Source: Magnolia sinica
Lineage: Eukaryota; Streptophyta; Magnoliopsida; Magnoliales; Magnoliaceae
Assembly: GCF_029962835.1 (NCBI RefSeq)
Contig: NC_080582.1
Coordinates: 17,182,032-17,246,031, forward strand
DNA length: 64,000 nt
Direction: 5' to 3'
Positions 29,407 to 39,148 of this stretch are shown in pieces; position 1 is the stretch's first letter, and each line of letters begins with the position of its first letter. Both the position numbers and the translations under genes were made by a program. The notes under the pieces were generated by a model. That model did no database searches and was not told the origin of the DNA. It saw nothing but the letters and a program-made list of their open reading frames with translations.

Positions 29407-29468
<62 letters not shown>
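29407..29468. repeat. (TA)n microsatellite
   Basis: About 60 bases of pure AT repeat. Confidence 0.9.
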
Positions 29469-29471
<3 letters not shown>

Positions 29472-29538
29472 GAGGCTGGCAACACACTAGGTACGACTTA
29501 TATATGTCGAGGCTGGCAACACACTAGGTACGACTTAG
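29464..29538. repeat. Perfect 37-bp tandem duplication
   Basis: The unit TATATGTCGAGGCTGGCAAC followed by ACACTAGGTACGACTTA occurs twice in a row without a mismatch, directly after the TA tract. It must be recent or polymorphic. Confidence 0.9.
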
Positions 29539-29569: not shown

Positions 29570-30060
29570 TACTACTCTAGAAACCTAAGTGGGGCCTGCC
29601 GTGGGATTTTCTGAGAAATTCATCCCTTCCATCCATTTTTTTTCATATCATTTAAGTGGTGGAGCCTAAAATTGAACTAAATCCAAGTCTCAAGTGGATC
29701 ATAACAACAATGATTTCAACCATTGAAATCTTGCTAGGCCCCACAGTGATGTTTATTTGTCATCCAATCTGTTCATAAGATCATACAGACATGGATGAAG
29801 AGAAAAAACAAATATAAGCTTGATTCAAAACTTCCGTGACTCCCAAGAATTTTTCAACAGTAGACGTTTAATTCAACTGTTTCATGTGGTGTGGTCCATT
29901 TAAATATTCTATGTGATTAATTTTTGGGCTCAAGACCTAAAATTATATGGTAAAATGGATGGACAGAACGGATCAGATACTTAAATAGTGGTGGACCTCA
30001 CGGAGTTTACTCAGTTCACTAGGCTTAGTGAGTTACTCACTGGGCAATCTGCTGCCGTCA
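29570..30060. mobile_element. GTGGGCC foldback element f
   Basis: The family interior is present from GTGGGGCCTGCCG to GGTGGACCTCACGGAGTTT. The right end has GAGTTACTCACTGGGCAATC, related to the ends of elements e and j. It lies just outside the palindromic giant. Confidence 0.7.
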
Positions 30061-30347
30061 AACAGGCCGTTCCGGGAGAAAATGACCACTGTAGACAAAA
30101 CCTTTTACCCAGCGGTTTTTATGAAGGAAGACAAACTTAAGTTACCAACTTAGACTAGCACGTGCGGACAACGACTTTGAGGACGAAACTACCCCACCTT
30201 TTCACTGCGAAGACGAGCGCCGACGCTCCTCCAACTGAGAGTTGTACGAACGGCTTAAAAGAGACCAAAGTTACATGGCCCCACAGCTATGTGTTTATTA
30301 TATCCACAACGTTCATCCATATTTCGAGATCATTTCGGAGCATTATC

Positions 30348-30378
<31 letters not shown>

Positions 30379-30574
30379 TCCAAAGATCAACTGGGCCACA
30401 CCACACAGAGCAGCGGAAAATTGATTTTCATCGTTGAAACTTTTGTAGGGCCCACCATAATATTTACTTTCCATCCAATCTATTCATAAGGTCACAAAGA
30501 ACTGGATGAAGAAGAAAAACAAATTTCATAATGATCCAAAACTTATGTGGCCCCTAAAAGGGTTTCAACGGTAG

Positions 30575-30790
30575 ACGTTCAAGTAGAATGGTAATAGCGT
30601 ATGCACAGGGAAACAGATATAGCTATGGTTATAATCCGTAGCCATAACAGTAGCTTGGTGATCAATCACGGATCCCGAGATTCCACCACAAGTCACTGTC
30701 CCTGTCGGCGATTAATCATGGATTCCGCAATTCCACCTCTGATCTATGGCTACGGATTATAACCGTAGCTATAACCGTATCGCTATGCAC
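30575..30790. repeat. Hairpin of GGTTATAATCCG words, left arm
   Basis: GGTTATAATCCGTAGCCATA near 30619 is mirrored by GGCTACGGATTATAACCG near 30747. Between them are CACGGATCCCGAGATTCC-like words. The right-arm counterpart is 37805-38030. It could be an independent hairpin MITE caught in both arms. Confidence 0.65.
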
Positions 30791-30986
30791 TTTTTTTATT
30801 TTAATTTTTATTTACATGGAGAATTTTATTCTACCTACATTTTTTTCTAACACATTTATTTAAATATGTAAATATAAGCATATAAAAAAAAATCTCTTTT
30901 TTTTTTTTTTTTTTTCATTTCTTCATTCATATAACAAGAATATTTTCTAAACCAAAATTAGTTACTTAACGTACCATATATAATTT

Positions 30987-31130
30987 TAGGGCTAAAAGTT
31001 GGGCGGGCTCAACCCGACCAACCTGTGACCGACCCGACATTGGATTGGGCTTAGTCAGGATGTATCGGGTTTGGTCTTGGGGTTGGGTCATACAAACAGC
31101 AACTCGATAAAACTTGGGTTGGGCTGAGGT
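30987..31130. mobile_element. hAT end relic, left arm
   Basis: TAGGGCTAAAAGTTGGGCGG and the following GTGACCGACCCGACATTGG match the end of the hAT element at 8047-8707. The mirror copy is at the outer edge of 37226-37598. The left copy is shorter by about 200 bases. Confidence 0.75.
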
Positions 31131-31137
31131 CTTAGGA

Positions 31138-31600
31138 ATTGCCAGGAAATGCATGTAAATGATCGTGAAATGCATGGAAATGACCGCGAAATGAAGGAAA
31201 ATGACTGTGAAATGCATGGAAATGACCGTGAAATGTATGGAAATGACCGTGAAATGAAGGGAAATGACCGTGAAATGCATAGAAATGACCATAAAATGAA
31301 ATGGAATCGCCGAAATTGACCTTGAAATGCATGGAAATGATCGTGAAGTGAAGGGAAATGATCGTGATATGCATGGAAATGACCGTGAAATGAAACGGAA
31401 TCGCCGGGATTGACCGTGAAATGCATGGAAATGACCGTGAAATGAAACGGAATCGCCGGGATTGCCCATGAAATGCATGGAAATGACCATGAAGTGAATC
31501 GAATTGACCGTGAAATGCATGGAAATGACCGTGAAGTGAAAGGGAATTGACCGTGAAATGCATGGAAATGACCGTGAAGTGAAGCGAATTGACCGTGAGA
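31138..31600. repeat. 21-bp array GACCGTGAAATGCATGGAAAT, left arm
   Basis: About 20 units with variants (GTGAAATGAAGGGAAATG, GAAACGGAATCGCCG). The 21-base period keeps long frames open in several phases on both strands, giving proteins of endless HFTVISMHFT- or FHGHFHAFHG-like repeats. These are not genes. The mirror array is at 36843-37225. Confidence 0.85.
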
Positions 31601-33170
31601 GAGAGAAGCTAGAAATTCAGCGAGGCAACCTAAAAATTGAGCGAGGCAACCTACGAATTAATCAAGGAACACTAGAAATTGAGCGAGGCAACCTACGAAT
31701 TGAGCGAGAGAACATAAGATTTAAGCGAGGGAAGCTAGAAATTCAGCGAGGCAACCTAAAAATTGAGCGAGGCAACCTAGGAATTGAGTGAGGGAAGCCA
31801 GGAATTGAGCGAGGCAACCTAGGAAATGAGCGAGAGAACATACGATTTGAGCGAGGGAAGCTAGAAATTCAGCGAGGCAACCTAAAAATTGAGCGAGGCA
31901 ACCTACGAATTAATCGAGGAAAGTTAGAAATTGAGCGAGGCAACCTACGAATTGAGCGAGGGAACATAGGATTTGAGCGAGGGAAGCTAGAAATTCAGCG
32001 CGGCAACCTAAAAATTAAGCAAGGCAACCTTGGAATTGAGCGAGGGAAGCTAAAAATTGAGCGAGGCAACTTACGAATTGAGCGAGGGAAGCTAGAAATT
32101 CAGCAAGGGAACTTAGGAAATGAGCGAGGGAGCATAGGATTTGAGCGAGAGAAGATAGAAATTCAGTGAGGGAACCTACGGATTGAGCGAGGCAACCTAC
32201 AAATTGAGCGAGGGAAGTTAGGAATTGAGCGAGGGAAGCTAGAAATTGAGCGAGGGAACCTACGGATTGAACAAGGCAACCTAAGAATTGAGCGAGGGAA
32301 GCTAGGAATTGAACAAGGTAACCTACGGATTGAGCGAGGCAACCTACGAATTGAGCGAGGGAAGCTAGGAATTGTGCAGGGCAACCTAGAAATTGAGCGA
32401 GAGAACATAGGAATTGAGCGAGGGAACTTAGGAATTGAGCGAGGGAAGCTAGAAATTGAGCAAGGCAACATACAAATTAAGCGAGGCAACCTAGGAAATG
32501 AGCAAGGGAACATAGGATTTGAGCAAGGGAACTAGAAATTCAGCGAGGCAACCTAAAAATTGAGCGAGGCAACCTACGAATTAAGCGAGGGAGCTAGGAA
32601 TTGAGCGAGAGAACCTAGCAATTGAGCGAAGGAACCTAAGAATTGAGCGAGGGAAGCTAGAAATTGACTGAGGCAACATACGAATTGAGCGAGGGAAGCT
32701 AGGAATTGAGCAAGGCAACCTAAGAATTAAGCGAGGGAAGCTAGGAATTGAGCGAGGGAACCTACAAATTAAGCGAGGCAACCTAGGAAATGAGCGAGGG
32801 AACATAGGATTTGAGCGAAGGAAGCTAGAAATTCAGTGAGGCAACCTAAAAATTGAGCGAGGCAACCTACGAATTGAGCGAGGGAAGCTAGGAATTGAGC
32901 GAGGGAACCTACAAATTAAGCGAGGCAACCTAGGAAATGAGCGAGGGAACATAGGAATTGAGCGAGGGAAGCTAGAAATTCAGCGAGACAACCTAAAAAT
33001 TGAGCGAGGGAAGCTTAGAAATTGAGTGAGGGAAGCTAGGAATTGAGCGAGGTAATTTAAGATTTGAGCGAGGGAAGCTAGAAATTGAGCAAGGGAACCA
33101 ACGGATTCCGCGAGGCAACATAGAACTTGAGCAAGACTATAGGAATTGAGTGAGGGTAAGTGTAAGGTGA
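31600..33170. repeat. 21-bp array GGAATTGAGCGAGGGAAGCTA, left
   Basis: About 75 units, with alternating variants AAGCTAG, CACCTAC and AACATAG after the constant ATTGAGCGAGG. Higher-order repeats of several units are visible (for example the set at 31735-31870 recurs from about 31850). It directly follows the first 21-bp family. Not coding. Confidence 0.9.
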
Positions 33171-33432
33171 GATAGGAAAACTTGAAATTAGGCGGGGCAA
33201 ACTAGAAGTTGAACAAAACAAGCATAAAAGTTGAGCGACGGAAACATTTACACGTTATGAAATTTAATTCATTATAAACTTTCCTGAAGTACAAATTGTG
33301 CGGGAAATATACAACACCATATATAATACAATATTCTATAAAATTATCCTTCTCATCTCATGCCTACAACAAGTATCATTTACAGGTTACAGATAAACAA
33401 TCAAACGCTATTGACTTCCTCCAATGTATAGT

Positions 33433-33520
33433 GAATTTTTGCATGTCTGTTCCCTCCAAGGTGCGACCATTACACAGTATATTGATGAATTTTTGCATGT
33501 CTGTTCCCTCCAAGGTGAAT
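33433..33520. repeat. 54-bp direct duplication in the core
   Basis: GAATTTTTGCATGTCTGTTC followed by CCTCCAAGGTG occurs at about 33433 and 33487. It lies between the left array and the DUF1985 gene. The surrounding 33.2-33.95 kb has no domain I recognise, though it could hold decayed exons of the same gene. Confidence 0.8.
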
Positions 33521-33954
33521 TAAGCAACATTTCATTTCAATCAAACGCTCATGATATCTCACCTGAAAACTATCACGGAGCAAGCCAACGACTCCGTTTC
33601 CCATTCTCGTAGGGTGGGTTCTAAGTTCTTTATTAAGATAGTCTGCAAAAGAACACAGACTGATGTTAATATACGGAGTGTAAGTGTCAAATCAAGCAAA
33701 GTGAACAGCGGAGAAATACATATACTTACAGCTTCACTCTAAAAAATTGCATACATTTTGTTGTAACTCCAACCCTTCCAGCCTCAATATTGAATGAAGA
33801 GTGAAATTTGTGAGAGAACAAATGAAATAATACACTCTCGTAGGGTTGGTAATCTCTCTACAGCCCATATCTATTTTAAAGAAGTTGCATAAGAATAAAA
33901 ATCCACAATTGAATATAATCATGTAGAATAAAGAAAGAGTTCTTACCTACAAAG

Positions 33955-34455
33955 GAAAGATACAACCATATACAGTGTAGCGAACCGCACTTGATGCCAT
34001 CACAGTAGCTGCGACCCCTTGCGACATTGTATTGTAGGCCAAGCTACCCCAAGGATAGCTATAGAAATCCTCTATAGAGTCTACTAAGTACATATAATCC
34101 ATGTTACACATAGTTTTTTATTCAGTTCCCCTAACAAAACACTCTACACACATAAGTAGAGCAACCTTCACGACATCCTCGTACTTATTGGTGTCAACTA
34201 ATTTATTAATCACATCTAATAAATGCTTCTTAAAAACTGGATATTCTCTGAAGTATTTGTCCATTAATGTATAACTCATGTGACGCTTTTTTGGTATTGT
34301 AAGCTCCTCAGTCTTAAGCCCTGTTATGAGGGCAAAGTCCATCTCCGTGAATTACAACCGTGTCCCTCGTATCTCAAATATAATATCACCTTTATATCTT
34401 ACAAGAAGAAGGTGAAATAGAGCCCCTATAAATCGAAAGGATGAGAGGTTCAACA
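33955..34455 (-). pseudogene. DUF1985 domain gene fragment in the element core
   Basis: On the minus strand one frame reads FRFIGALFHLLLVRYKGD, FEIRGTRL, a TAA stop (34354-34352), FTEMDFALITGLKTEEL, MDKYFREY, VALLMCVECFVRG, a second TAA (34120-34118), then DSIEDFYSYPWGSLAYNT and YTVYGCIFPL. The landmarks FALITGLK, VKVALL...E and SYPWG are those of DUF1985, a plant domain found with Ulp1-type (C48) peptidase domains in transposon-borne genes. Right after the last block comes TAG and then GTAAGAAC, a possible splice donor. Apart from the stops the frame is well kept over about 165 codons, so decay is recent. No C48 catalytic part is recognised. On the plus strand nothing is seen. Confidence 0.75.
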
Positions 34456-34589
34456 AGAAGGAAAATGGGGATTGCTTGAATAGACGTAGCCGAGTATCAT
34501 GCTTCTCTAATCCACACATATAATTAGAGCAACCTTCATTACTTAGAGAATCATAACGAAAAAAAATTAAACATAGTTGAAATCGAGTG

Positions 34590-35330
34590 AAGCAGACTAA
34601 AAATTAAGCGAGGCAAATTACAAAATGAGTGAGGGAAACATGAAATTCAGCAAGGCAAACATTAAATTCAATGAGGCAAGATGAAATTGAGCGAGGCAAC
34701 TTAAAAAATTGAGCGAGGCAAGGTAAAATTGAGCGAAAAACCTAGAAATTAAGCGAGGCAACCAAGAAATTCAGCGAGGGAACCGAGACAATGAGCGAGG
34801 GAACTAAAAAATTCAGCGAGGCAACCTAGGAATTAAGCGAGGAAAGCTAGAAATTGAGTGAGGGAACCTAGAAATTCAGCAAGGAAACCTACGATTTGAG
34901 CGAGACAACCTAAAAATTGAGCGAGGGAACCTAAAAATTGAGCAAGGCAACGTAGGAATTCAGCGAGGTAGCCTGGGAATTGAGCGAGGGAAGGTAGAAA
35001 TTGAGCGAGGCAACCTAGGAATTGAGCGAGGAAAGCTAGAAATTAAGCGAGGGAAGGTAGATATTGAGCAAGGGAAGCTAGGAATTAATCGAGGAAACCT
35101 AGGATTTGAGCGAGGAAAGCTAGAAATTGAGCGAGGGAACCGAGAAATTGAGCGAGGGAACCTAGGATTTGAGCAAGGCGACATAGAAATTGAGCGAGGC
35201 AATGTAGGGATTGAGTGAGGGAAGCTACGAATTGAGCGAGACAGCTTACGAATTGAGCGAGGGAAGCTAGAAATTCATCTAGAGAACTTATGAATTGAGC
35301 AACGGGAGGTAAAAATTGAGCTCGCTCAAT
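34590..35330. repeat. 21-bp array (ATTGAGCGAGG type), right of core
   Basis: About 35 units in the same orientation as the left array, so this array is a direct, not inverted, partner. Variants include AATTCAGCGAGG and GAAAGCTAGAAATTGAGCG. Confidence 0.85.
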
Positions 35331-35510
35331 TTCCAGTTTATCCCACTCAATTTCCAGTTTGGCCCGCTTAATTTCCAGTTTGTCTCGCTCAATTTTCAGT
35401 TTGGCCCGCTCAATTTTCAGTTTGTCCCACTCAATTTCCAGTTTGTCCCGCTCAATTTCATGTTTGCCCCGCTGAAATTCATGTTTGCCCTGCTCAAATG
35501 AATTTTCCAC
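35330..35510. repeat. 21-bp array CTCAATTTCCAGTTTGTCCCG, first block
   Basis: About eight units. The complement (GGGACAAACTGGAAATTGAG) is clearly related to the GAGCGAGGGAAGCTAGAAATT units, so the array switches orientation abruptly at about 35325. Confidence 0.85.
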
Positions 35511-35725
35511 CATCGACCCGATGAAATCTTAGAAAATAACTAGATTGGTTGGTCTAGTGTTGATAGTTCCAATCGACCAAATAATTCAGGATACTTTATA
35601 GGATCCATTAAAATATATAGTAGAATCTCGATTATTAATGAATTACCATATGATACATTGCATATTGAAGAATATCATGATTATCCCAAGTTAGAGAATG
35701 TTGGAATCATTGGCCATTTACAAAA
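35475..35725. repeat. Direct duplication, first copy (about 250 bp)
   Basis: TTCCACCATCGACCCGATG, then AATAACTAGATTGG, TACTTTATAGGATCCATTA and GAATATCATGATTATCCC. The second copy is at 36595-36843, about 1.1 kb on, with the 21-bp array in front of both. A segment of array plus spacer was duplicated. The DNA between (35.73-36.14 kb) holds no recognised gene. Confidence 0.85.
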
Positions 35726-36144
35726 TGATAATCTAATTGTATCCGGATGTGGCATGCCAAATTTATGCCTATGCAGTGTTCGTGTCTAAATTAAATACAT
35801 TCCAACCCATCGCGTTCTCTAGTGTTCAAATATTATTTTTTTAATAATATTTATTGCATGAGAAATATCATCATTGCCAACTCAGCTATTTTAATTCCCT
35901 CCAAGAGGAACTAAACAGAAATAAGAAGGACAAGCCCAAAAGTAATAGCTAGTCAAAGTAAAACTACAAGAAGAAAACAAAAGTTTGCAGAGTCTAACAA
36001 TGTAAAACCTTACCTCTATTCCAAGGATTTTGTTGACTCCGTACATGTGGTGCAAACCACATACTATTTCCCTAATCACTGTATTAAGTCCGGGGCACAG
36101 GCCCCCACATGTTACAATGCATGCAGGCCTCCCTGGAAATTTCT

Positions 36145-36605
36145 AGTTTGGCCCACTCAATTTCCAATTTGTCTCGCTCAATTTCCAGTTTGGCCCACTC
36201 AATTTCCAGTTGTCCTGCTCAATTTCCAGTTTGTCCCGCTCAATTTTCAGTTTGGCCAGCTCAATTTCCAGTTTGTCCCACCCAATTTCCAGTTTGTCCC
36301 GCCCAATTTTCGGTTTGGCCCACTCAATTTTCGGTTTGTCCCACTCAATTTCCAGTTTGTCCCGCTCAATTTCCAGTTTGTCCCGCTCAATTTCCAGTTT
36401 AGCCCGTTCAATTTCCAGTTTGTCCCGCTTAATTTCCAGTTTAGCCCGCTCAATTTCCAGTTTGGCCCACTCAATTTTTAGTTCGTCCCGCTCAATTTCC
36501 AGTTTGGCCCGCTTAATTTCCGATTTGTCCCACTAAATTTCCAGTTTAGCCTGCTCAATTTCCAGTTTGGCCCGCTCAATTTCATGTTTGCTCCGTTGAA
36601 ATTCA
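36145..36605. repeat. 21-bp array CTCAATTTCCAGTTTGTCCCG, second block
   Basis: About 21 units. Open frames of NFQFVPLNFQFG- or NWKLSGTNWKLSG-like repeats follow from the 21-base period and are not genes. Confidence 0.85.
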
Positions 36606-36843
36606 TGTCTGCCCCGCTCAAATGGATTTTCCACCATCGACCCGATGGAATCTTGAAAAATAACTAGGTTGTTTAGTCTAGTGTCAATAGTTCCAATCAA
36701 CCAAATAATTCAAGATACTTTATAGGATCCATTAAAATATCCAGTAGAATCTCGATCATTAATGAATTACCATATAATATATTGCATATTGAAGAATATC
36801 ATGATTATCCCAAGTTAGAGAATATTGGAATCATTGGCCATTT
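36595..36843. repeat. Direct duplication, second copy
   Basis: Counterpart of 35475-35725 with scattered substitutions; homology ends at ATTGGCCATTT, where the right-arm GTGAAATGCATGG array begins. Confidence 0.85.
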
Positions 36844-37225
36844 TTAAGCATTTCACACTCAATTCCGTTCACTTCATGGTCATTTTCACACATTTCACAG
36901 GCAATTTGCTTCACTTCACGGTCATTTCCATGCATTTCACGGTCATTCCCAACCATTTCGTGTTAATTCACGCTCATTTCCAAGCATTTCACGGTCAATT
37001 CCCTTCACTTCACGGTCATTTCCATGCATTTCACGGTCAATTCGCTTCACTTCACGGTCATTTCCATACATTTCACAGTCAATTCGCTTCACTTCACGAT
37101 CATTACCATGCATTTCACGGTCAATTCCGGTGATTCCATTTCATTTCACGGTCATTTCCCTTCACTTCACGGTCATTTCCATGCATTTCACGGTCAATTC
37201 CCTTCACTTCACGATCATTTCCATG
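36843..37225. repeat. 21-bp array, right arm (inverse of 31138-31600)
   Basis: Units of TTCCATGCATTTCACGGTCA type, about 18 copies, the complement of the left-arm array. This is the innermost part of the mirror symmetry. Confidence 0.85.
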
Positions 37226-37598
37226 TATTTTTTTCTAAACAAACAAGCTAAAATATAAGACAACTACTCCATTACAAGTCGTATTTTGTATCAAGCAATT
37301 TATTTGGGAGAGGGAAATCCGACATATCTTGTTAGCTTGAGGGGAGGCATTGGAATTTCCTTTGCCTTCAACACAAATGATCTGCACTCAATTATAATTA
37401 ATTTATAAGGAACTTATATCTTAATCGGGTTTGTGTTGGGTCAGGCAACCCGAGACCAACCCAAGTTTTATCGGGTTAGTGTTTGTATGGCCCAACCCCA
37501 AGACCAAACTCGATACATCCTTCCCAAGCCTAACCCAATGTCGGATCAGTCACAGGTTGGTCGGGTTGAGCCCGCCCAACTTTCAGCCTTAAAATCAT
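37226..37598. mobile_element. hAT relic, right arm (3' half)
   Basis: TTCTAAACAAACAAGCTAAA, AGACAACTACTCC, CTTCAACACAAATGATCTGC and the end GCCCGCCCAACTTTCAGCCTTA follow the right half of the hAT element at 8320-8707 base by base with moderate divergence. The left arm keeps only the outer 140 bases of it. Confidence 0.8.
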
Positions 37599-37804
37599 AT
37601 ATGGTACGTCAAGTAACTAATTTTGGTTTAGCAGATATTCTTGTTATATGAATAAAGAAATAAATGAAAAAAAAAAGAGATTAGTTTTTTTTTATATGCT
37701 TATATATACATATTTATATAAATATGTGTTAGAGAAAAATGTAGGTAGAATAAAATTCTCCATGTAAAAAAATAAAAATAAAAATAAAAAATAAAAGCTA
37801 AAAA

Positions 37805-38030
37805 AGGATAAGGATATGGTTATAGCTACGGTTATAATCCGTACCCATAGATCGGGTGTGGAATTGTGGAATCCACGATTAATTACTGACTAGGACAGCG
37901 ACTTGCGGTGGAATCGCGAGGGCCGCGATTGATCGTAGAGCTATAGTTATCGAAAAAGCAGGGGCTACGGATATGGCTACGGTTATAATCCGTAGCTATA
38001 GAAAATCGTAGCCATAGGTTCCTGGTTTTT
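37805..38030. repeat. Hairpin of GGTTATAATCCG words, right arm
   Basis: GCTACGGTTATAATCCGTAC near 37826 and GCTACGGTTATAATCCGTAG near 37976, with GGAATCCACGATTAAT-like words between. Counterpart of 30575-30790, slightly rearranged. Confidence 0.6.
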
Positions 38031-38689
38031 TTTATTTTTTTATTTATTTTTGCTGTTGTATCCCCACTGCCTTTTGTGGGTCCCATCATGAGGTCTGTGT
38101 TATATCCAAACCGTCCATCTATTTGGCGAGCTCATATTAAGCTTGAGACATAAAATAAGACAGATCTAACTATCAAGTGGATGCAGTGAAGAATTGAACG
38201 TCTACCATTGAAACCCTTTTAGGGGTTACAGAAGTTTTGGATCATTATGAAATTTTTTTTCCTCTTCATCCAGGCCTTTGTGACCTTATGAATAGATTGG
38301 ATGGAAAATAAATGTTATGGTGGGCCCTACAAAATTTTTAACGGTGAAAATCAGTTTTCCCGCTTCTCTTTGTGGTGTGGTCCAGTTGATCTTTGGATAT
38401 GATTTTTTTTTGGATAATGCTCTAAAATGATCTCGAAATATGGATGAACGTTGTAGATATAATAAATACATAGCTATGGGGCCATGTAACTTTGATCTCT
38501 TTTGAGCCGTCCGTACAACTCTCGGTTGGAGGAGCGTCAGCGCTCATCTTCGAAAGGAAGGGAGGGGTATTTTCGTCCTCAAAGTCGCTGTCCGCACGTG
38601 CTAGTCTAAGTTGGTAACTTAAGTTTGTATTCCTTCATAAAAATCGCTGGATAAAAGGTATTGTCTACAGTGGTCATTTTCTCCCGTTC

Positions 38690-39148
38690 TGGAAACAGAT
38701 TGGCTACTCCCCAGCCACCAGCCAGTGGTGGGTGGTCGGTGCTCTTTGGGCCCTACAATGATGTATGTGTTTCATCCATGCCGTCCATATATTTTTCTAG
38801 AACATTTTTGGGTATGAGACCAAAACTAACGTATATACCAGTCTCAAGTGAACCACATTTCAGGAAACAGTGTTGATTGAACGTAGACTATTAAAAACTT
38901 TTTGGGATCCAAAAAAGTTTTGGATCAAGATGATATTTGTTTTTTCACTTCATTTATGTTTGTATGACCTAATCAATGGATTGGATGTCAAATAAACAAT
39001 ATAGTGGGCCTTAGGAGGATTTTAATGGAGGATATCTAATCACTATTGTTTTCCTGTGGTGTGGTCCACTTGAGATTTATATCCCTTTAATTTTTGGGAT
39101 AAATCCATAACATGATATGTAAAAATAGATGAACAACATGGATGAAAG
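38690..39148. mobile_element. GTGGGCC foldback element g, interrupted
   Basis: It starts GGAAACAGATTGGCTACTCC at 38691, the same terminus as element d, and runs to GAACAACATGGATGAAA, where an LTR begins at 39149. The missing 3' end would be about 80 bases. The element lies 5 bases outside the palindromic giant. Confidence 0.8.

What the first reader, a model, noticed from the sequence alone, without database searches (positions are those of the whole stretch)
30074..38685. An 8.6 kb palindromic transposon built from two families of 21-bp repeats around a DUF1985 cargo gene
The two ends mirror each other through at least five distinct blocks (terminus, foldback piece, hairpin, hAT relic, 21-bp array). 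The core holds a DUF1985 gene. Long-armed MULEs and Ulp1/DUF1985 cargo (Kaonashi-type) are known, but arms made of about 150 copies of 21-bp repeats flanking such a gene are unusual. I saw no transposase and no target duplication, so class membership is inferred.
Basis: partly seen in the sequence, partly recalled or inferred. Interest (0 to 1): 0.85.

Follow-up and report, generated by a model that had tools for sequence, protein, structure and literature searches.

The report
Magnolia jumping gene with repeat arms
It is a disabled jumping gene in a magnolia, one copy of a large family in which other members still encode a transposase or a SUMO-protease-like gene; its arms are built from 21-letter repeats that occur in tens of thousands of copies and may be docking sites for the family's own anti-silencing protein.

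Summary
Window 30076-38683 (8,608 bp) is one transposon inserted in another repeat: ~282-bp inverted termini, an 8-of-9 matching 9-bp target duplication, and 26 uninterrupted relatives of the target site. It carries about 175 units of 21 bp. The genome is very probably Magnolia sinica. All 10 fetched copies repeat the left-arm order and core; 8 of 10 have both terminal blocks.

It is a non-autonomous Mutator-like element (MULE). Relatives with the same termini encode a MuDR-type transposase at a fixed distance from the end (14 of 99 copies), others an Ulp1/C48 gene; one of 40 bounded elements shows both. In the wider family the two genes are convergent in 30 of 30 nearby pairs.

DUF1985 also occurs in Arabidopsis VANC anti-silencing proteins, whose targets are tandem repeats in MULEs (PMC5735166). 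The arrays may be such docking sites: inferred, not shown. ULP-bearing MULEs and repeat-built arms are each known; the combination is a new variant.

The parts
30067..30075 (.). left copy of the 9-bp target duplication, CCGTTCCGG
   Evidence: 8 of 9 with the right copy; 26 uninterrupted target relatives
30076..30357 (+). left terminal inverted repeat, begins GAGAAAATGACCACTG
30415..30582 (+). second mirrored block (FB)
30590..30800 (+). hairpin-like mirrored block
30885..31130 (+). mirrored block B, 0.76-1.05 kb from a listed terminus in 17 of 40 scored places
31146..31598 (+). first 21-bp family (21a), left arm, 20 units
31596..33132 (+). second 21-bp family (21b), left arm, 73 units
33379..33507 (-). 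remnant of the C-terminal end of an Ulp1/C48 gene; the catalytic part (938 bp relative to the C6:84.61 Mb copy) is missing here
34118..34603 (-). broken DUF1985 frame (in-frame stops)
   Evidence: 7.7e-07 with X at the stop, under the curated cut-off; 4.1e-15 in an unbroken relative; no codon-position bias
34601..35321 (+). 21b, 34 units right of the core, same orientation as the left array
35322..35497 (-). inverted 21-bp variant (21b2), 8 units
35500..35725 (+). segment repeated at 36625-36850
35718..36125 (-). captured phosphofructokinase exon with intron
   Evidence: PFK structures 2.6e-06, PF00365 weak, 93% over 410 bp to the gene at C13:13.49 Mb
36138..36623 (-). inverted 21b2 array, 23 units
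36625..36850 (+). second copy of the repeated segment
36848..37230 (-). 21a, right arm, 17 units
37448..37693 (-). block B, right arm
   Evidence: 88% complementary
37800..38020 (-). hairpin-like block, right arm
38190..38360 (-). FB block, right arm
38403..38683 (-). right terminal inverted repeat
38684..38692 (.). right copy of the target duplication, CCGTTCTGG

Best explanation
A non-autonomous member of a TIR-type MULE family in Magnolia. Its termini were cut and joined by a MuDR-type transposase encoded by other members with the same termini (shown: termini, 9-bp duplication, empty-site relatives, transposase inside same-ended elements; inferred: supply in trans to this copy). It entered a pre-existing repeat. 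Its arms are foldback-type, built from 21-bp minisatellites. The wider family pairs the transposase with a convergent Ulp1/C48-DUF1985 gene; the window's subfamily spread after losing the transposase and the C48 catalytic part, and its DUF1985 remnant decays without sign of selection. A host phosphofructokinase exon was captured before the copies that carry it spread. What the arrays do is the least certain step: most likely (about 0.4) they are docking sites for the family's DUF1985 protein and work like VANC targets in Arabidopsis VANDAL MULEs, stripping DNA methylation. The stated confidence is for class and mode of movement, not for the arrays' function.
For: Target duplication 8 of 9 in the window; 9 exact duplications of 8-10 bp among 20 elements with both ends read. 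Empty site: 26 of 40 scored places run uninterrupted across the junction. 612 termini at up to 3 mismatches in 35 bases, 0 for the reversed pattern; among 100 listed, neighbours within 40 kb are convergent 28 times, otherwise 2. Transposase in a 23.6-kb element with a 10-of-10 duplication, same termini and both 21-bp families; 14 of 99 scored transposase copies (12 of the 26 best) have one of 195 listed termini 4.37-4.71 kb upstream, 0 downstream. C48: 9 of 150 scored copies have a listed terminus upstream, 8 of them at 4.75-4.86 kb, 0 downstream. Convergent transposase/C48 in 30 of 30 pairs within 30 kb, from 99 and 150 copies. PFK capture. For the arrays' function: VANC proteins carry DUF1985 and bind motifs held in tandem repeats (PMC5735166: abstract, passages, section 9).
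Against: Only 1 of 40 elements bounded by listed termini contains both a listed transposase and a listed C48 copy; 10 have only the transposase, 7 only C48, 22 neither (gene lists capped at 99 of 1809 and 150 of 1061 candidates). The termini of the other convergent pairs were not checked. 6 of 20 elements show no convincing duplication. Two long elements read in full hold no C48 or DUF1985 match. For the arrays' function: the two 21-bp families share no significant motif (785 and 166 of 3000 shuffles reach the score); CpG decay in arrays is not clearly lower than elsewhere in the element; the window's DUF1985 is dead; no binding or methylation data.
Confidence: 0.9

Rival explanations
1. The arrays have no protein partner: they are ordinary foldback arms that grow and shrink by slippage, unequal exchange and repair after excision.
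For: Nematode Tm1 has 9-bp duplications, arms of 13-15-bp tandem repeats and a Mutator-type transposase; the same paper says FARE of Arabidopsis holds a MULE transposase (PMC3169594, passages). Arrays occur also in members without DUF1985 (C10_29, C1_1.97). A 1.06-kb member with a 9-of-9 duplication has no array, so arrays are not needed for movement.
Against: Unit counts are very large and arrays cluster with the family (25 of 47 clusters within 10 kb of a listed landmark, 0.22 expected); spacing is strict. These facts fit both readings.
Confidence: 0.4
2. The inverted arrays are transcribed into hairpins that feed small-RNA silencing; the arrays are a host-exploited liability rather than a tool of the element.
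For: Arms are inverted over several hundred bases; [quoted passage not shown] CpG contexts vary more than other sites in all parts of the element, as expected of methylated DNA.
Against: No transcript or small-RNA data here; it does not explain why the arrays persist and multiply.
Confidence: 0.15
3. The arrays are coding minisatellites, exons of a repetitive protein of the family (units of 7 codons).
For: The unit is a multiple of three and long frames stay open; PMC5735166 section 9 says variable parts of VANC proteins often hold tandem peptide motifs.
Against: Variation in the units shows no third-position excess, spacing shifts of 1 base occur (20: 63, 22: 16 against 21: 918), and arrays lie on both strands.
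Confidence: 0.05
4. Chance neighbours: two unrelated repeats on either side of a gene, not one element.
For: The region is rich in repeats and the target is itself a repeat.
Against: 10 of 10 copies colinear through left arm and core, duplications, 26 uninterrupted target relatives.
Confidence: 0.01

Closest known systems
ULP-bearing TIR-MULEs (grapevine, melon) and KAONASHI (KI/KIU) MULEs of Arabidopsis
   Same: MULE transposase with an Ulp1/C48 gene downstream, in KI in reverse orientation; ULP found in TIR and non-TIR MULEs; 9-nt duplications (PMC2528002 passages; PMC13317346 passages).
   Different: KI-MULEs are non-TIR; here long TIRs, 21-bp arrays in the arms, and in the window a dead, truncated gene.
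VANDAL MULEs with VANC (Arabidopsis)
   Same: DUF1985 in the accessory protein; [quoted passage not shown]
   Different: VANDALs are described as non-TIR; their motifs (YAGTATTAY; AGTTGTMC) are not these 21-bp units; anti-silencing not tested here; DUF287 not found or searched for apart from Pfam scans of single frames.
Foldback-type MULEs: Tm1 (root-knot nematode), FARE (Arabidopsis)
   Same: Composite terminal repeats with tandem sub-repeats, Mutator-type transposase in some members, 9-bp duplication in Tm1 (PMC3169594 passages).
   Different: Tm1 unit is 13-15 bp and its transposase is of the Phantom type; FARE paper not held, so details of FARE not seen.
Pack-MULEs
   Same: MULE carrying a copied host gene piece, here a phosphofructokinase exon with intron.
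   Different: This element also keeps remnants of the family's own accessory gene and large arrays.

Membership tests
Mutator-like elements (MULE) | 8-11 bp target duplication | tested here: met
   window 8 of 9; 9 exact of 20 elements with both ends read; range from PMC6446971 passages
Mutator-like elements (MULE) | long terminal inverted repeats | tested here: met
   ~282 bp, 90-94% complementary
Mutator-like elements (MULE) | MuDR-type transposase in the family | tested here: met
   in same-ended relatives, not in the window copy: MULE 5.6e-20, DBD_Tnp_Mut 2e-12, SWIM 1.7e-08; position
Mutator-like elements (MULE) | movement by that transposase | not testable with these tools
   needs an excision or transposition assay
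KAONASHI / KI-MULE | Ulp1/C48 gene in reverse orientation to the transposase | tested here: met
   30 of 30 nearby pairs in the wider family; 1 element with both genes and both listed termini; not in the window copy itself
KAONASHI / KI-MULE | no terminal inverted repeats | tested here: not met
   TIRs present; so it is not filed as a KI-MULE
VANDAL/VANC anti-silencing system | DUF1985 protein | tested here: met
   4.1e-15 in a relative; broken in the window
VANDAL/VANC anti-silencing system | motif arrays bound by the protein, with loss of DNA methylation | not testable with these tools
   arrays exist; binding and methylation unknown; CpG decay test inconclusive
VANDAL/VANC anti-silencing system | DUF287 in the protein | not tested
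   full gene model not available
Foldback-type elements | long composite inverted repeats containing tandem sub-repeats | tested here: met
Pack-MULE | captured host gene fragment with a donor elsewhere | tested here: met
   93% over 410 bp to C13:13.49 Mb
   block B travels with the family termini in 17 of 40 scored places

The most novel reading that the evidence does not exclude
The 21-bp arrays are the coevolved targets of a VANC-like anti-silencing protein of the DUF1985-Ulp1 kind in a magnoliid. More than 110,000 docking sites genome-wide, spaced mostly in whole helical turns, would make gene-poor copies such as this one respond in trans both to the transposase and to the anti-silencing protein of other members, which here often sit in different elements. 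Sequence-specific anti-silencing would then reach beyond the Brassicaceae, perhaps back to before the magnoliid-eudicot split, and work through proteins that carry a SUMO-protease domain.
Probability: 0.33. Interest if true: 0.78.

Novelty: new variant of a known kind. Interest (0 to 1): 0.5.

Why it matters
The family joins three things that the papers seen here treat apart: arms built of minisatellites, ULP/DUF1985 genes in MULEs, and anti-silencing through tandem-repeat targets. If the arrays are such targets, the age and generality of sequence-specific anti-silencing become testable in a tree far from Arabidopsis; if not, the family is a control showing that such arrays arise without it. 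Practically, it supplies ends, duplications, a transposase and gene positions for annotating hundreds of copies in Magnolia, some of which carry host exons.

Tried and rejected
Transposase beside the C48-bearing copy at C6:84.61 Mb: an 875-aa FAR1-type MULE protein lies outside that element's ends, so it was not taken as the family's. A common motif of the two 21-bp families: not significant (785 of 3000 shuffles for 21a with 21b, 166 of 3000 with 21b2; 21b with 21b2 is clear, 0 of 3000). CpG decay as a footprint of past hypomethylation: CpG/non-CpG ratios core 5.35, 21b right of core 4.37, 21b left 3.52, left terminus 2.83, right unique region plus block B 2.93; 21b left is lower than the core, but its non-CpG rate is raised, probably by alignment, and the terminus is lower still, so inconclusive. 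Codon-position test on DUF1985: 0.037, 0.030, 0.025 in 11 copies, and 0.027, 0.015, 0.018 with CpG contexts left out; no third-position excess. Helical phasing: 21a steps of 21, 31, 42, 52, 62-63 and 73 fit turns of about 10.4 bp, but 10/11-bp half-units give the same numbers. Complete elements: I first took the 30 convergent pairs as proof that complete members with these termini carry both genes; the check showed both in only 1 of 40 bounded elements, and the claim was cut back. Literature on this family: one search (Mutator-like, tandem repeats, terminal inverted repeats, 21-bp, Magnolia, at least 4 of 5 terms) found no paper; 'mutator' and 'mule' have no occurrence in the held main text of the M. 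sinica genome paper. That is all the absence I can claim.
Full report
Observation. The mirrored blocks and two 21-bp repeat families are in the sequence at the stated place. Counted as gapless units with up to 8 mismatches, the second family has 73 units left of the core, 34 right of it in the same orientation, and 8 plus 23 inverted; the first has 20 and 17; 175 in all. At 6 mismatches the reversed element gives 0, 1 and 0. The element is 30076-38683, 8,608 bp, two bases shorter at each end than written, because the outer GG and CC belong to the duplication CCGTTCCGG / CCGTTCTGG (8 of 9). That its first bases resemble the ends of maize Mu is recalled, from no call.

Insertion. The joined flanks with one copy of the duplication make a 284-base empty site. 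Of 40 scored places (4267 candidates), 26 match across the junction without interruption at 80-87% identity; two of the 40 are the window's own flanks. So the element entered a pre-existing abundant repeat. The inverted pair 29712-29872 / 38876-39036 (77%) may be that repeat's own arms; this is inference.

Genome. The window lies in an assembly of 1,838,573,281 bases in 127 contigs. Contig C1 is 141,926,363 bases, exactly the maximum scaffold length published for Magnolia sinica; the paper gives 1,839,595,854 bases in 130 scaffolds (PMC10999834, passages).

Other copies. The core (33140-34600) matches over its full length at 13 of 40 scored places (1023 candidates), itself included, the others at 90-94%. 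I fetched 20 kb around 10 of the other 12. All 10 repeat the order of the left blocks, arrays and core; 8 of 10 have a right terminal block in the stretch, 5 of them complete at both outer ends. Six of 10 carry the PFK piece; in C15_3, C3_83, C5_115 and C6_16 it is missing and the right half differs. Of 20 elements with both ends read (the window, 8 of these, 10 other pairs, and the copy at C6:84.61 Mb), 9 have exact duplications of 8-10 bp, 2 match 8 of 9, 2 match 7 of 9, one (C3_83) matches 9 of 9 but with a shortened right end and a longer flank repeat, and 6 show none that convinces. The first 35 terminal bases occur at 612 places with at most 3 mismatches, 0 for the reversed pattern. Among the 100 places listed, neighbours within 40 kb are convergent 28 times, divergent once, tandem once; the 28 span 1.06 to 35.6 kb.

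Transposase. The 23.6-kb element at C10:29.32 Mb has the same termini, a 10-of-10 duplication, both 21-bp families and a MuDR-type transposase (DBD_Tnp_Mut 2e-12, MULE 5.6e-20, SWIM 1.7e-08). Of 99 scored relatives of it (1809 candidates), 14 have one of 195 listed termini 4.37-4.71 kb upstream in the right orientation, 12 of them among the 26 best; none has one downstream. The listed termini are a part of those known, so these are lower bounds.

DUF1985 and C48. In the window the DUF1985 frame is broken. Joined with X it scores 7.7e-07, under the curated cut-off; an unbroken 286-aa frame of a relative scores 4.1e-15, above it. The copy at C6:84.61 Mb, with the family's termini and a 9-of-9 duplication, keeps a C48 frame, 1.6e-17. 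The window keeps only the part matching its last 43 residues; 938 bp are missing against that copy, and the same catalytic part is missing in all 10 fetched copies. Among 11 copies the DUF1985 stretch shows no third-position excess: it decays. In the genome, 30 of 99 transposase copies have one of 150 scored C48 copies (1061 candidates) within 30 kb, and in all 30 it lies downstream on the opposite strand, the layout described for KI-MULEs (PMC2528002, passages). Against a simple picture: of 40 elements bounded by listed termini, 1 holds both a listed transposase and a listed C48 copy (C4:12.81 Mb, 17.7 kb), 10 only the transposase, 7 only C48, 22 neither, and the two long elements read in full hold no C48 or DUF1985 match. 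So in the same-ended family the two genes often sit in different elements, or the partner is too decayed to be in the capped lists.

Captured exon. Window 35718-36125, minus strand, encodes [35 protein letters not shown] and matches phosphofructokinase chains at 2.6e-06. A gene at C13:13.49 Mb matches at 93% over 410 bp including intron and continues into further frames that read like PFK and that the element lacks (naming those further frames is my reading, not a search). About 13 places hold most of the segment, the window included.

The arrays. At up to 3 mismatches the first unit occurs 89,982 times and the second 23,178 times, against 10 and 15 for the reversed patterns. Of 47 clusters of exact second-family units listed on C1-C4, 25 lie within 10 kb and 27 within 20 kb of a listed terminus, C48 or core copy; random placement gives 0.22 and 0.41. 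Twenty have no listed landmark near. Both families are in the transposase-bearing C10_29 and in C1_1.97; the C48-bearing copy has the second family and almost none of the first. The 1.06-kb member at C5:15.119 Mb has a 9-of-9 duplication and no units, so arrays are not needed for movement. Spacing of the second family in 14 loci is 21 bp 918 times, 42 bp 207 times, 20 bp 63 times; the first adds 31, 52 and 73.

What the arrays may do. [quoted passage not shown]; PMC10398659: passages). A review names Ulp1-bearing VANC genes KIU and says they act on their own kind (PMC13317346, passages). A DUF1985-C48 family with huge arrays of its own fits that, and I put it at about 0.4. The main rival, equally likely, is that these are plain foldback arms, as in nematode Tm1 (PMC3169594, passages). 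The CpG test did not separate them.

Verdict. A well-delimited, non-autonomous TIR-MULE of an ULP/DUF1985-bearing family, with foldback-type 21-bp arms and a captured PFK exon: a new variant of a known kind.

Noticed in passing
window 29712-29872 and 38876-39036: A further inverted pair (77%) outside the element; with the empty-site hits it suggests the element sits inside another abundant inverted-repeat sequence with 4267 candidate places.
   Followed up: partly
L048 (C13:13485000-13491000): Phosphofructokinase-like gene that looks like the donor of the captured exon, with a Copia-like polyprotein frame at its left.
   Followed up: partly
L031 (C5:15118896-15120160): 1.06-kb member with perfect 9-bp duplication and no 21-bp units: a miniature form of the family.
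   Followed up: partly
C3:93752501(-)/93753522(+) and C14:79942832(-)/79943153(+): Pairs of family termini facing outwards a few hundred to a thousand bases apart, as if two elements lie back to back.
   Followed up: no
L049:6900-9524 (C6:84.607 Mb): 875-aa FAR1-type MULE protein with MULE and SWIM domains next to, but outside, a family element; domesticated gene or another transposon.
   Followed up: no
copy C3_83 (L013/L014): Right terminus lacks its last bases and the flank repeat is about 16 bp instead of 9: an aberrant insertion or repair.
   Followed up: no
genome-wide: The first 21-bp unit (89,982 places) is about four times as common as the second (23,178), so it must occur in many elements outside the window's subfamily.
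   Followed up: no
window 29407-29537: A run of 31 AT units followed by a 37-bp sequence repeated about twice, just left of the target repeat.
   Followed up: no
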